In this document: positions 1 to 9,652 of the stretch, in pieces
Numbering within the stretch: position 1 is the stretch's first letter
Layout of the letters: every line of letters starts with the position of its first letter
NCBI GenBank assembly: GCA_017353855.1
Contig: JAFMSA010000002.1
Location: 1-32,136 of the forward strand
DNA length: 32,136 bases
Direction: 5' to 3'
From: Alphaproteobacteria bacterium
GTDB lineage: Bacteria; Pseudomonadota; Alphaproteobacteria; ATCC43930; CGMCC-115725
Program-made: the position numbers and the translations under genes
Notes under the pieces: model-generated
Databases searched by the model: none
Seen by the model: only the letters and a program-made list of their open reading frames with translations
Told to the model about the DNA's origin: nothing

Positions 1-387
1 CGTTCATGGCCCACCCCCTGTGGGTCCAAACCGGCGCGAGCGTTTGAAGATCTGCGGGTATGGCAGAAGGCCCACCGTTTCGCGCTGGCGGTTTACGCTT
101 TCACCGCAACTTTTCCCAAACACGGGACCTACGGGCTGTCGCTGCAACTGCGTCGGGCAGCGGTGTCGATACCCGCCAATGTCGCCGAGGGAGTCCGCCG
201 TCGCAGCAAAGCCGCTAAGGCTCGGTTCATGAACATGGCCGAGGGATCCGTCGAGGAATGCCGCTATTTTCTGGTCCTCGCCAAGGACCTGGGCTATGGT
301 GACGCAGGACCGCTTTCCCCAATGCTGGAAGAAGTCAGCCGGCTCTTGAGCGTGTACGTTAACACCATTCTGGCTTCTGACTCCTGA
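1..387 (+). CDS. Four-helix bundle protein (S23 / 23S rRNA intervening-sequence protein family), 5' end uncertain or truncated by window edge
   Basis: Frame 1 is open from base 1: ...FEDLRVWQKAHRFALAVYAFTATFPKHGTYGLSLQLRRAAVSIPANVAEGVRRRSKAAKARFMNMAEGSVEECRYFLVLAKDLGY...; the F-x-DL-x-VW-x-KAH and SIPANVAEG motifs are typical of the family. The listed ORF 163..387 is only the C-terminal part. Confidence 0.85.
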   Translation, partial: RSWPTPCGSKPARAFEDLRVWQKAHRFALAVYAFTATFPKHGTYGLSLQLRRAAVSIPANVAEGVRRRSKAAKARFMNMAEGSVEECRYFLVLAKDLGYGDAGPLSPMLEEVSRLLSVYVNTILASDS

Positions 388-424: not shown

Positions 425-428
425 GGCG

Positions 429-472
429 GCCGGATTGCTGAACGTTTCATCCCGTGCGGGTCTGCCGCGCGC
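429..472 (+). repeat. 44-bp dispersed repeat, copy 1
   Basis: gccggattgctgaacgtttcatcccgtgcgggtctgccgcgcgc; 40/44 identical by eye to 11611-11654. Confidence 0.75.
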
Positions 473-568
473 GGCCCGGTGGAGAACTAATTAGAAGGCA
501 AGGTCCGGATAGCGCGCGGGGACGGATGCGGGGCATTTAATCATCCTCGATCCACTGGGGATGAAGCG

Positions 569-1047
569 ATGCCGAGCCGTATCGACAGCAGGACATATGG
601 GACCGTTAGCGCCGCCAATCAGAAGGAGATGACTGGGCTGCAATTTGTGCAGGGTCTGGCAGACGGGACGTTGCCGCTCAACACAATAGCCAGGACCTTG
701 GGTTACGATATCACCGAGGCGGAGCAAGGGCGCGTCGTCGTTATCGCAGAGGCAAAAGACGTTCACCTGAATCCCGCTGGCACTGTGCACGGCGGTCTCG
801 CAGCTACAATGCTCGACAGTTGCATGGGCCTCGCGATCCAATCGACCTTAGCGAAAGGCCTCGGTTCCACGACTTGTTCAAGATGTCATTTGTCCGACCG
901 ATTACGGCAGAGACAGGCCCGATCAAGGCCGAGGGAATGGTGATCAGTCGGGGTCGCCGAGTCGGCACCGCGGGAGGACGTGTCACGGACAGCAATGGGC
1001 GCTTGCTCGTCCATGGGACTACGACCTGCTTGATTTTTGAAAGCTGA
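569..1047 (+). pseudogene. PaaI-like hotdog thioesterase, frameshifted
   Basis: 569 frame gives ...LNPAGTVHGGLAATMLDSCMGLAIQSTLAKGLGSTT; the continuation FKMSFVRPITAETGPIKAEGMVISRGRRVGTAGGRVTDSNGRLLVHGTTTCLIFES is in the 820..1047 frame. Shift near 873-880. Confidence 0.85.
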
Positions 1048-2021: not shown

Positions 2022-2658
2022 TCAAGGACAAGCAGACCCGCCCTCCGGCAACCCCAGCGACCAGACCTTCACCCGATAGCGATACCGCACTACCGCCGGC
2101 TCCAACCCCCGCATCCGTGCGAGCTCGTATAATGGAACATCCTCACCCCGCCACTTCACCCTAATCCCCGCCCGGTAGCGACGCTGCTCCGCATCCGTCG
2201 ACCACCAACAGTTGCCGGGCCCGTAGTTCCCGTCCCGACCGATCCGGTCAATCGGATACTCCCGCCCAGGACGGTTGCCCATGTCCGCCAGAAAATCAGG
2301 AAACGAACGCCGTCACCGCTCGCAAATGCCCGATCCCGCGGGCCCCGTAGAGCCGACACTTGTAATTGCGCCAGTTGTAGCAGCGCTCGCGCATGTTCCG
2401 TCACGAGCCGTACGTCAGCCGATGCTCCACAACCAATGACTTACGCCGCGTCCGAGGCGGCCGAAGCGCATGCAGCAACGGACCGTGCGGCCCGTTGCAC
2501 GACCGCTTCTGACCCCGCCGTAATTACGTCCCCGCTACCTCAACAATCGTCCCGCAATTGCACTCGCAAACCCAAGTCGCGTACCTCCGCTCCGACCTGC
2601 CCGCGCGCTCTATTACACGCAGCTCTCCAAGTACTCGGCCCGTCATGTCTATGACCAT
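2022..2658 (-). pseudogene. HNH endonuclease-like gene (phage/mobile HNH type), decayed
   Basis: Minus strand, across frames: MIDMTGRVLGELRVIERAGRSERRYATWVCECNCGTIVEVAGT*LRRGQKRSC...MRERCYNWRNYKCRLYGARGIG/GICER*RRSFPDFLADMGNRPGREYPIDRIGRDGNYGPGNCWWSTDAEQRRYR. In-frame stops plus frameshift; IDRI-x-x-DGNY-x-PGNC-x-W motif retained. Confidence 0.8.
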
Positions 2659-2996
2659 CTGAAACGGCACAACATGATATTTGACGTCGTATTTAATACG
2701 CTTACCAGATATTACACAATTCACAGAGATATAATACGCCCCTCCAATAATGACCACGACCCAAAACGTCTGATCATCCTCCGAGGGAATGCCCGGATCG
2801 ACAGGCGTGCGATCGTGGCGCGCAAGTGCTCAATCGCACGCATCTCTCGTTCGGTCCGTGTCATGTCGGAGAGTAGATCCGCGTTTACGGTCCGCCTGGT
2901 GGCCCGAAACAGGATCAGGACGCTTACTGTGGCCCACCAGTCTGTCAAAAAAAGAGCAGGCGGATCAATCGGTGCCGTCCTGCTGTTCGTCCTACT

Positions 2997-3038
2997 GTCG
3001 ATCGGGAGGGGAAAGCAGTCGATCGGAAGGGGAAAGCA
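2997..3038 (+). repeat. 21-bp tandem duplication containing a Shine-Dalgarno-like sequence
   Basis: gtcgatcgggaggggaaagca / gtcgatcggaaggggaaagca, one mismatch, ending directly at the GTG start at 3039. Confidence 0.85.
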
Positions 3039-3320
3039 GTGTCATCCTTACGCGTCATCGAACAAGAATTTCGCCAAGCGTGCGAGGCATTCCTGAAAGA
3101 GGGTCGCGAGCTGTATTCCCGGGTCGACGAGCTCCTCGCTACCATTAACAACACACCACCCGGTAGCCTGGCCGATTGTGTCCGAAAACTACACCTGCTC
3201 GCCAACCGCGAGTTCGGCGGGGCCGCCGGCGATCGCGACGACGATATCACGTCGCTGCGCCAGGTAATAACATTCCTCGAGGATTTTCGACAATCGCTAC
3301 GGGATCTAGCGGCGGATTGA
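3039..3320 (+). CDS. Uncharacterised small protein, paralog 1 (93 aa)
   Basis: GTG start with purine-rich RBS; aligns over most of its length with the ORF at 3931 (YSRVDELLxTINNTPP...NREfGGAAGDRDDDxTSLRQVxxFLEDF). Confidence 0.75.
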   Translation: MSSLRVIEQEFRQACEAFLKEGRELYSRVDELLATINNTPPGSLADCVRKLHLLANREFGGAAGDRDDDITSLRQVITFLEDFRQSLRDLAAD

Positions 3321-3930
3321 AGGTCATGGGCCCGAGCCGGTCGCGAGAACGCGCCACCAGCTACCCCACTGCGGGCGGGCGCACTTTTTATCTTTTCAAC
3401 GAAAAAGGGGGAGGCCCGTCACACAACACGCACCCCCACCGACAAGGTTCTCGAAATTGGGGCGACGCAATCCCCGGGCTGGGACCCGGCGAGGCTAGTG
3501 TTAGAGGGGAGTCTCATACCGGCGAGAGGAGTAGTATCGACGGATAAATCCCGTCGCGATCCCCGGACCCGCCGTGCCACCCTTTGCCACGCCTGGCCGG
3601 CCTCGAGTTACTGTGCGTCCGACCTGCCGTGCCCGCGGATGATTCGCCATCTCAACCGCGACAAGGAGGAAGAGGTGTTTGTCGCAAACTGAACACTCTC
3701 GGGTAGGGTTATACGCCGCGGATAGGATACATGTGTGCAGCGCGTCACAATCCGAGATCTATACGCGCCCGATCCACGCCGGGGCCGCCTGATGGGGAAA
3801 TAGGGTCCGGCCTGCTTGTGCATGGGGCCCTACCCGCTTGTTTTCGTTCTCCCCCCATCAAAAACGGACGGGTCTGTGACGGTCCTGCGGTTATGGTCGG
3901 CGTCACGGGGATAATCGGGAGGACAACCGA

Positions 3931-4218
3931 ATGTCACGCTTGAGCGCGCTTGAGCACGAATTCCATAAAGCCTGCGCAGCGTTTCGCGAACCAGATCGCG
4001 CCGACGCCGCATACGACGCCATATACTCCCGCGTCGACGAACTCCTCGGTACCATCAACAACACACCACCCGCCAGTATTGGCGGCTGCGTCACAAAACT
4101 TCGCGCGCTCGTCAACCGCGAACTCGGCGGGGCCGCCGGCGACCGTGACGATGATGTCACGTCGCTGCGTCAGGTGCTCGCGTTCCTTGAGGATTTCGAC
4201 AGGCTCTACCGGAGCTAA
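3931..4218 (+). CDS. Uncharacterised small protein, paralog 2 (95 aa)
   Basis: ATG start with GGGAGGA upstream; strong protein and nucleotide similarity to 3039..3320. Confidence 0.8.
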   Translation: MSRLSALEHEFHKACAAFREPDRADAAYDAIYSRVDELLGTINNTPPASIGGCVTKLRALVNRELGGAAGDRDDDVTSLRQVLAFLEDFDRLYRS

Positions 4219-4745
4219 TCTAAGACGGCGAATCGAATAGCGTGAGAAATGCTCAGCCTTCGGTGCCTCGAGCAAGCCGCGGATTTCCTTCTCATGTGTG
4301 AGTAGCCAGGCTAACCGCTCTGGCGGTGGCCGCCGGGGTCGAAGCATCCCTCAATCCGCTGAAAGCGTTGCTGGCTCGTATACTCCACCGCTCGCGTATC
4401 TCCGGATTCGGCCAGGTGAATTCCTCGCGAGAGCACAGAGCGCCCCAGCCATTCAAGTGTCAGAGGCTCCAATAGGGCCGGTGGAACAAAGGGCGGCCAC
4501 CCGCCGCAGATGATATACTACCGTGCGCGCTCGGGCCGCTCAGTGGCGGATGGCGCCGTCGGTCCGGCATACTACCGTCGAATGTGCTCTCCGGTGACGA
4601 GCAAGGCCCGGTTGAGCTACCACCCGTGAAGAAGAGCCCGCTTCAAGCGCAGCAACGTCAGACGACGCAAGGCCACTCTCGCATCTTTACGGCATTTCGC
4701 ATTTCGGGCTCGTACCGCTGACACAACTTGGGCGTGGACCATTGT

Positions 4746-4995
4746 GAGATCGGCTTCGATAATCGGCTCCAACACGAGCTTCGTGGCTGTCATGCAAACC
4801 CGATCCTGCACGCTCGAGATGCTCAGCGGCCTGAGTTTGCCGTGGGCGTTCGGCATAAACACTCGTCTGATTGGCCCTGGCCGGTAGGTCTCCTGCCTGA
4901 GCGCGAGCGCCTGTTCGGCCAGCCACCACTCGGCCCCGTAGCCTCGATGTCGCAAAGTCCCCGCCGTCGATTCCCGGCGCGGCCTGTTGGAGCGG
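4746..4995 (-). pseudogene. Group II intron-type reverse transcriptase, N-terminal remnant
   Basis: APGIDGGDF in one frame, then WWLAEQALALRQETYRPGPIRRVFMPNAHGKLRPLSISSVQDRVCMTATKLVLEPIIEADL in the 4617..4955 frame; matches the conserved early RT region and then ends. Confidence 0.8.
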
Positions 4996-8548: not shown

Positions 8549-9652
8549 TTACGCGACACACCTCGACCGTGCAGCTGCGCGGCTGACAGTCGCACTGCGA
8601 TCGAGAACTCCGCGGATCCTCGGCATTACCTCTTCGCCGAACGCCCTCATCGAGCGCTCGACCAGGTCGTAGGGCATGGCGCCAAGCTTGAAGATCATCG
8701 CAAGCCCCATCAAATCGAGCTGGCTCGCTAGGCGGAGAATAGCCTTCGCCACCGTGTCCGCGCTGCCGAGGATCACCATGTCGCTCGCGACGATATCGTC
8801 GAAGCTCATCGCATGCAGCATCGGCGCCTGGCGCCGCCAGAAATCGTAGCTGTCCGGCAACTTTCCACCATGGGTGAACTGTGTATAGCGGTTCCAGAGC
8901 TCCCAATATTGCAGCAGATAAGGTTGGGCCTCAGCGCGGGCACGATCATCGCTGTCGGCCACATAGATCTCCCGCATTACATAAAGGCGCGACTCCGGCG
9001 GGTGCCCATGCGCCATCTGGACCCCGCGATAGAATGCCTGGTCGCGCTTCGCCTGATCGATCATTGAATCGATCTGCGCGAACGGGATATCGTGCTGGGC
9101 GGCCCAACGCAGCGTCTCCTCGCTCTGAGCGCTGACTAGGAACGGCGGATGCGGACGCTGCACAAGCGGCGGTGACAGCGGTGCGTCCTTCCGTACCGTC
9201 CAATACTTGCCCTGATGCTGAAAGTTCTCGTCGGCCCAGACCCGGCGAATGATGTCGAAGGATTCGAGGAACATCTCGCGCGACTGCTGCTGGTCCACGC
9301 CGAATGCCTCGAATTCGGGCGGACGCAGGCCCCGGCCGAGGCCCATATCGAGACGCCCGCCGGTGAGGTTGTCGAGCATCGCCGCCTCCTCGGCGACGAG
9401 CAGAGGATGCCGGAACGGCAGAATGTTGACCATGCTACTGAAGCGGATGCGGCGGGTCCTGCGCGCCGCGGCAGCGATTAAGAGGTTGGGCGACGGCACC
9501 GGCGCCGTGGGCTGGAGGTGGTGCTCGAAGAACCAGATCTGATCGATGCCGACGCGGTCTGCCAGCTCGACTTCCTCGAGCTGACGCTGGAACATTTCTG
9601 GATGCGTAGAATTTTCGCGTGGTGTCGTCGTCGACCAGATTGCAAGTCTCAC
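8549..9652 (-). CDS. LLM class (luciferase-like) flavin-dependent oxidoreductase
   Basis: GTG start with GGAGG upstream; DRVGIDQIWFFEHHLQPTAPVPSPNLLIAAAARRTRRIRFSSMVNILPFRHPLLVAEEAAMLDNLTGGRLDMGLGRGLRPPEFEAFG. Confidence 0.93.
   Translation of the reverse strand: MRLAIWSTTTPRENSTHPEMFQRQLEEVELADRVGIDQIWFFEHHLQPTAPVPSPNLLIAAAARRTRRIRFSSMVNILPFRHPLLVAEEAAMLDNLTGGRLDMGLGRGLRPPEFEAFGVDQQQSREMFLESFDIIRRVWADENFQHQGKYWTVRKDAPLSPPLVQRPHPPFLVSAQSEETLRWAAQHDIPFAQIDSMIDQAKRDQAFYRGVQMAHGHPPESRLYVMREIYVADSDDRARAEAQPYLLQYWELWNRYTQFTHGGKLPDSYDFWRRQAPMLHAMSFDDIVASDMVILGSADTVAKAILRLASQLDLMGLAMIFKLGAMPYDLVERSMRAFGEEVMPRIRGVLDRSATVSRAAARSRCVA

What the first reader, a model, noticed from the sequence alone, without database searches (positions are those of the whole stretch)
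3039..4218. Tandem pair of unrecognised ~94-aa paralogs under apparent purifying selection
ORFs 3039..3320 and 3931..4218 share YSRVDELLxTINNTPPxS...CVxKLxxLxNREfGGAAGDRDDDxTSLRQVxxFLEDF. In two blocks compared codon by codon (16 codons YSRVDELL..TPP and 20 codons RE(F/L)GGAAGDRDDD(I/V)TSLRQV), I count about 10 synonymous and 3 non-synonymous differences. That pattern implies protein-level selection, although HNH, RT and thioesterase remnants surround the pair. I recognise no family for it. The Asp-rich GDRDDD turn between likely helices could be a ligand or metal site (inference).
Basis: partly seen in the sequence, partly recalled or inferred. Interest (0 to 1): 0.62.

Follow-up and report, generated by a model that had tools for sequence, protein, structure and literature searches.

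The report
Small helical satellite-linked protein pair
Two neighbouring genes make a small four-helix protein that no family library names; its relatives sit again and again in prophages and virus-like "satellite" elements of the soil bacterium Azospirillum, so the pair is probably a cell-resident offshoot of mobile-element genes whose exact job is still unknown.

Summary
ORFs A (3039-3320) and B (3931-4218) are 60% identical paralogs.

The pair is not alone. The same genome has two intact two-domain paralogs (contigs C892, C117) and a frameshifted remnant (C494). None was found in 38 genomes of the same family. No library (Pfam, NCBIfam, PHROGs, PADLOC, PDB) names the domain.

Distant homologs occur in 20 of 45 Azospirillum genomes. 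There, 14 of 33 loci lie within 10 kb of an Arm-type integrase (0.23 expected). Four loci lie in 15-16 kb, att-bounded islands laid out like capsid-forming phage satellites, where the family genes open the rightward operon, divergent from an XRE-like regulator. Others lie in tailed prophages.

With homologs, AlphaFold gives a confident four-helix model (pLDDT 84) with no PDB match. The GDRDDD stretch is not conserved, so a metal site is unlikely; the loop T-x-P-x-[ST]-x-x-D is.

Best reading: an unnamed mobile-element early-region domain, kept here as orphan genes, probably binding another protein. The window copies themselves are in no recognisable element, and molecular function is untested.

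The parts
3039..3320 (+). ORF A, 93 aa, single TPP...D four-helix domain, GTG start
   Evidence: open frame; found by HMM built only from Azospirillum domains, E=3.9e-9; dN/dS 0.24 against B
3931..4218 (+). ORF B, 95 aa, paralog of A, ATG start
   Evidence: Azospirillum-only HMM E=1.2e-10; AlphaFold model with homologs pLDDT 84.1, pTM 0.73
2997..3038 (+). 21-bp tandem repeat (gtcgatcgggaggggaaagca / gtcgatcggaaggggaaagca) that carries the Shine-Dalgarno-like sequence of ORF A
   Evidence: sequence read directly; function inferred
3917..3923 (+). GGGAGGA Shine-Dalgarno-like sequence, 7 bases before the ATG of ORF B
   Evidence: sequence read directly; function inferred
3147..3179 (+). approximate span of the conserved loop region of ORF A, NNTPPGSLADC: T-x-P-x-[ST]-x-x-D between helix 2 and helix 3
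   Evidence: P47 28/30, D52 28/30, T45 21/30 over 30 domains (B numbering); helix limits
4057..4089 (+). approximate span of the same loop of ORF B, NNTPPASIGGC (the conserved Asp is Gly here)

Best explanation
A and B encode small, all-helical proteins (about 95 aa, four helices) of an unnamed domain family whose relatives are carried by integrative elements: prophages and phage-satellite-like islands. SHOWN: paralogy, past purifying selection, paralogs elsewhere in the genome, homologs in Azospirillum, and the position of those homologs as the first gene(s) of the rightward operon, divergent from an XRE-like regulator and upstream of HTH regulators and capsid/packaging genes, inside att-bounded islands. 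INFERRED: the copies in this genome are element-derived orphans that multiplied (single-domain pair, two-domain fusions, one pseudogene) and were kept by the cell. INFERRED and least certain: the protein works by binding another protein, through the conserved T-x-P-x-[ST]-x-x-D loop between helices 2 and 3, as an early accessory or regulatory factor of the element (switching off the regulator, or interfering with a helper phage or competitor), not as an enzyme or metal binder.
For: Paralogs on C892 (202 aa) and C117 (308 aa), each with two copies of the domain. A profile from four domains of this genome finds an Azospirillum gene at E=2.6e-6; that gene alone finds others at about 1e-13; the joint profile finds 36 matches in 20/45 Azospirillum genomes. 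Reverse test: an HMM of 27 Azospirillum domains hits A, B, C892 and C117 (4e-9 to 4e-15) and nothing else among 1358 frames. 14/33 loci lie within 10 kb of an Arm-type integrase, 0.23 expected. Four islands of 15-16 kb: int, divergent XRE-like gene, family gene(s), HTH genes, portal, protease/capsid, HNH, TerS, TerL, att repeats of 20-59 bp, three at tRNA genes. Other members lie beside the integrase of a contractile-tail prophage. Homologs lie on IMG/VR contigs of 14.6, 15.1, 15.5, 36 and 45 kb. Adding homologs raises AlphaFold confidence from pLDDT 65 to 84.
Against: The window copies are in no recognisable element: 24 element proteins (integrases, portal, capsid, terminases and others) hit nothing on the window, C892, C117 or C494 except the family protein itself. 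Identity to the Azospirillum members is only about 20-30%. The Asp most kept in the loop is Gly in B. Genes at that site in satellites can be unrelated cargo, so position does not prove a regulatory role. No partner, expression or phenotype is known.
Confidence: 0.55

Rival explanations
1. The family is an ordinary fast-evolving chromosomal family of Alphaproteobacteria that islands and prophages picked up as cargo; in this genome A and B serve a host function with no tie to mobile elements.
For: The copies here lie among ordinary metabolic genes: window flank genes, and an ion-exchanger-like gene beside the C892 copy. 19 of 33 Azospirillum loci are not within 10 kb of an Arm-type integrase. 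A genome of another family (G389) has a possibly related tandem pair (TPA..KLR) beside housekeeping genes.
Against: Patchy presence: absent from 38 genomes of the same family including 8 congeners, 20/45 in Azospirillum; strong integrase enrichment; a constant place in four islands. Loci without an Arm-type integrase may use other integrases or lie further from one; that was not tested.
Confidence: 0.25
2. A and B are decaying leftovers: open frames that have not yet been broken, without present function.
For: They sit in a 5-kb stretch with broken RT, thioesterase-like and HNH-like fragments; one relative (C494) is frameshifted; the sigma-70 scan found no promoter-like site, although it covers one promoter type only.
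Against: Both frames are intact and dN/dS 0.24 shows constraint for most of the time since duplication; two further paralogs are intact.
Confidence: 0.15
3. The domain is part of a toxin-antitoxin or anti-phage defence module carried by satellites.
For: Place between integrase and replication/packaging genes beside an XRE-like regulator; islands often carry accessory genes (PMC6092414).
Against: No PADLOC match; no catalytic-looking conserved residues; the XRE-like gene is divergent, not in the same operon as an antitoxin partner would normally be; A and B have no such neighbour.
Confidence: 0.1
4. The GDRDDD stretch is a metal or ligand site.
For: Identical in A and B; lies just before helix 4 in the model.
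Against: Not kept in relatives: acidic in 5-7 of 21 residues per position; lowest model confidence around there (block mean pLDDT 61).
Confidence: 0.03

Closest known systems
Capsid-forming phage-inducible chromosomal islands (cf-PICIs), as elements that carry the homologs
   Same: Azospirillum islands with int, regulators, portal, protease/major capsid, HNH, TerS and TerL, 15-16 kb, att repeats, three at tRNA genes, no tail genes seen before the att; matches the description in PMC10690885
   Different: Helper-dependent induction untested; XRE-like and MerR-like genes in place of a clear AlpA (HTH_17 score below cut-off); the window pair itself is not in such an element
TPA/TPP...KLR hypothetical proteins of other Alphaproteobacteria (G389, locus L062)
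   Same: Similar size, helix-TP-x-S-helix-KLR pattern, again a tandem pair; profile-profile probability 85%
   Different: Very low identity, aligned over 58 columns only; one of the four profile rows was itself found with the window profile, so the test is not fully independent
UPF0149 / PRK04758 (YecA/YgfB-like helical proteins)
   Same: Weak match of the C892 paralog (20.1 bits against cut-off 25; 18.8 against 196)
   Different: Below both cut-offs; no such match for A or B; no structural match among the best hits listed
CC0731 family (NF052665)
   Same: 17.7 bits over 30 residues of A
   Different: Cut-off is 130 bits; B does not match

Membership tests
Azospirillum-type island/prophage domain family (unnamed) | Significant profile match in both directions | tested here: met
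   Window-genome profile to Azospirillum E=2.6e-6; Azospirillum-only HMM to A 3.9e-9 and B 1.2e-10, no other frame
Azospirillum-type island/prophage domain family (unnamed) | Four helices with T-x-P-x-[ST]-x-x-D loop between helix 2 and helix 3 | tested here: met
   Model H3-18, H25-43, H50-61, H73-94; loop conservation; B has Gly at the Asp position
cf-PICI (for the islands that carry homologs) | Integrase and att direct repeats | tested here: met
   PF00589/PF13356; repeats of 21, 59, 32 and 20 bp, random-pair 95% = 15 bp, maximum 21; tRNA-Leu/Ser at three ends
cf-PICI (for the islands that carry homologs) | Portal, protease/capsid, HNH, TerS, TerL, without tail genes | tested here: met
   absence of tails judged by reading the ORFs between TerL and att in G368 and G352 only
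cf-PICI (for the islands that carry homologs) | AlpA-type regulator | tested here: inconclusive
   HTH_17 18.6 and 19.9 bits against cut-off 27
cf-PICI (for the islands that carry homologs) | Induction and packaging by a helper phage | not testable with these tools
   needs experiment
cf-PICI (for the window pair) | Lies in such an element | tested here: not met
   No element protein other than the family domain hits the window, C892, C117 or C494
UPF0149 (PF03695) | Score above curated cut-off | tested here: not met
   C892 paralog 20.1 against 25; A and B no match
CC0731_fam (NF052665) | Score above curated cut-off | tested here: not met
   17.7 against 130
Known anti-phage defence proteins (PADLOC) | Profile match | tested here: not met
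   0 families for six family members

The most novel reading that the evidence does not exclude
The domain is a dedicated early control or interference protein of a so far undescribed group of capsid-forming phage satellites in Alphaproteobacteria (the first product made once the XRE-like regulator lets go), and this genome has kept and multiplied copies as a cell-owned means of controlling satellites or phages.
Probability: 0.15. Interest if true: 0.68.

Novelty: new member of a known kind. Interest (0 to 1): 0.45.

Why it matters
The pair leads to a protein domain that is common in Azospirillum mobile elements yet absent from the family libraries, and to att-bounded satellites in a plant-growth-promoting genus that are laid out like capsid-forming islands. 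A conserved first gene next to the regulator is a natural place to look for how such satellites are switched on or interfere with phages. If the copies in the window genome act on phages or satellites, it would be a case of a bacterium keeping a satellite protein for its own use.

Tried and rejected
Two genome-contig scans and one viral scan with the window-genome queries found nothing; since homologs do exist, that reflects the need for conserved short words, not absence. tblastn of B against plasmids and phages was empty or chance. Weak library matches (ASA5, VMAP-M0, CC0731, UPF0149, phrog_34607, phrog_36505) were rejected as below cut-off or chance-level. G284 and G416 hits were rejected: the first lies in a leucyl-tRNA-synthetase-like frame, the second in an unrelated-looking protein. 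Hits of the 202-aa paralog in G094, G108, G302 and G314 (E about 1e-3) were treated as chance. A profile of the broader TPA..KLR type found nothing in 289 genomes; no genome known to match was reported in that sample, so the empty answer shows nothing. The first AlphaFold model (two sequences, pLDDT 65) was too weak for fold comparison; the second (seven sequences, pLDDT 84) found no PDB match at E<=0.001. Contamination as the source of the contig was considered: an 81% match of a flank gene in congener G007 argues against it.

Full report
WHAT IS THERE. ORF A (3039-3320, GTG start, 93 aa) and ORF B (3931-4218, ATG start, 95 aa) are open and on one strand, 56/94 residues identical. Over 89 codons dN/dS = 0.24, bootstrap 0.09-0.44, with changes at codon positions 20/21/40. 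That is the mark of protein-level constraint in this frame. The duplicated unit is essentially the gene; the flanks do not align beyond short stretches. The sigma-70 and terminator scans found nothing, but both genes have a Shine-Dalgarno-like sequence; that of A is tandemly repeated, 2997-3038.

THE SAME GENOME. The window is contig C835 of a 5.1-Mb, 937-contig assembly. Protein search finds two more intact genes: C892 (202 aa) and C117 (308 aa). Each holds two copies of the domain in one chain; the first copies were picked up by a profile made only of second copies and A/B (E = 3e-7 and 1e-3). C494 holds a short frameshifted piece, about 80% identical in DNA. No match was found in 8 congeners or 30 further genomes of the family. 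The contig belongs to the genus: a flank gene (8549-9652) is 81% identical in congener G007.

NO KNOWN FAMILY. Pfam, NCBIfam, PHROGs, PADLOC and PDB sequence searches give nothing above cut-off for A, B or their paralogs, nor do Pfam, NCBIfam and PHROGs for the Azospirillum relatives tested.

RELATIVES. The four-domain profile finds one gene in an Azospirillum genome (E = 2.6e-6; the genus is inferred from a homolog of that gene on A. lipoferum 4B plasmid AZO_p1). That gene alone finds others in the genus at about 1e-13, and the joint profile A5 finds 36 matches in 20 of 45 genomes, several with two domains in one chain. As a reverse test, an HMM from 27 Azospirillum domains with no sequence of the window genome hits A (3.9e-9), B (1.2e-10), C117 and C892, and no other of 1358 frames, with E-values scaled to 300,000 sequences. 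Domain selection used A5, so this is not fully independent. Adding five homologs from IMG/VR contigs to the two window proteins lifts the AlphaFold model of B from pLDDT 65 / pTM 0.55 to 84 / 0.73, which also speaks for true homology.

SHAPE AND CONSERVATION. The model is four helices (3-18, 25-43, 50-61, 73-94). No PDB match reaches E<=0.001; the first, weaker model also had none among viral models. Over 30 domains the kept positions are F11, A14, I42, T45, P47, D52, L57 and G66. The GDRDDD run of the window pair is not kept: positions 71 and 73-75 are acidic in 5-7 of 21 Azospirillum domains. A metal or ligand site there is therefore unlikely; the loop T-x-P-x-[ST]-x-x-D before helix 3 is the better candidate for a functional surface (inference).

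NEIGHBOURHOODS. Arm-type integrases are rare in Azospirillum: 87 in 45 genomes. Yet 14 of 33 family loci lie within 10 kb of one, against 0.23 expected (the calculation ignores relatedness of loci, so the P of about 1e-22 is too small). An all-against-all comparison of 23 neighbourhoods shows a recurrent integrase (12 loci), HTH genes (8 and 6 loci) and two further unnamed proteins (11 and 9 loci). In four species the family gene(s) sit in islands of 15-16 kb bounded by direct repeats of 20-59 bp, three of them at tRNA-Leu or tRNA-Ser genes (random-pair 95% limit 15 bp). Their order is int, XRE-like gene (divergent), family gene(s), HTH genes, portal, protease/capsid, HNH, TerS, TerL. This is the content described for capsid-forming PICIs (PMC10690885; general PICI layout in PMC6092414). 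No tail genes were seen between TerL and the att in the two islands read through. IMG/VR holds homologs on contigs of 14.6, 15.1 and 15.5 kb, the size of such islands, and on 36- and 45-kb contigs. The 45-kb case is a contractile-tail prophage in which the family gene overlaps the integrase tail to tail; a second species has the same pair.

WHAT THE WINDOW PAIR IS. By homology A and B belong to this domain family. They do not lie in such an element: 24 element proteins give no hit on the window, C892, C117 or C494 except the family protein. Around them are an RT fragment, a truncated DUF4442 gene and an HNH-like fragment (by eye). The simplest account is element-derived genes that outlived their element and multiplied; cargo picked up by elements from a chromosomal family is the main rival.

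MECHANISM. Shown: small protein predicted to be helical, past constraint, first-gene place in islands. Inferred: protein-protein binding through the conserved loop, early in the element's cycle. Whether the partner is the XRE-like regulator, a helper-phage protein or a host protein cannot be told from sequence. I put about 0.55 on the element-derived, protein-binding reading as a whole, much less on any one partner.

LIMITS. The genus sample of the window's own relatives is mostly incomplete assemblies; absence there is soft. Selection today on A and B could not be measured for lack of orthologs. The G389 tandem pair may be a further branch (hhalign 85%) but is not used in the argument.

Noticed in passing
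L099+L116 (G368), L097+L117 (G338), L101+L118 (G352), L096+L119 (G363): Four att-bounded 15-16 kb islands in Azospirillum with the gene content of capsid-forming phage satellites; worth a report of their own.
   Followed up: partly
L125 (IMG/VR UViG_3300022742_000121, 15.5 kb): A metagenome-derived viral contig that looks like the same satellite type, with integrase, family genes and portal.
   Followed up: partly
window 163-387 (+): Short 23S rRNA-intervening-sequence-type protein (PF05635, 57 bits).
   Followed up: no
window 569-943 (+): DUF4442 (hot-dog thioesterase-like) gene that appears to continue in another frame at 820-1047: likely frameshifted.
   Followed up: partly
window 2022-2757 (-): HNH-like fragments split over two frames; relatives of this DNA on contigs C155 and C315 of the same genome (67-72%).
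   Followed up: no
window 4617-4955 (-): Fragment of a group II intron reverse transcriptase/maturase.
   Followed up: yes
window 427-489: A stretch of about 62 bp repeated on contigs C607 (89%) and C848 (83%) of the same genome; possible dispersed intergenic repeat.
   Followed up: no
L062:5631-6343 (-): Tandem pair of TPA..KLR proteins in another alphaproteobacterium; the upstream one begins with what looks like a twin-arginine signal peptide.
   Followed up: partly
Azospirillum loci L105-L110, L113-L115, L058: Two unnamed proteins (about 180 and 250 aa) recur beside the family gene in 9 and 11 loci and match nothing in Pfam.
   Followed up: partly
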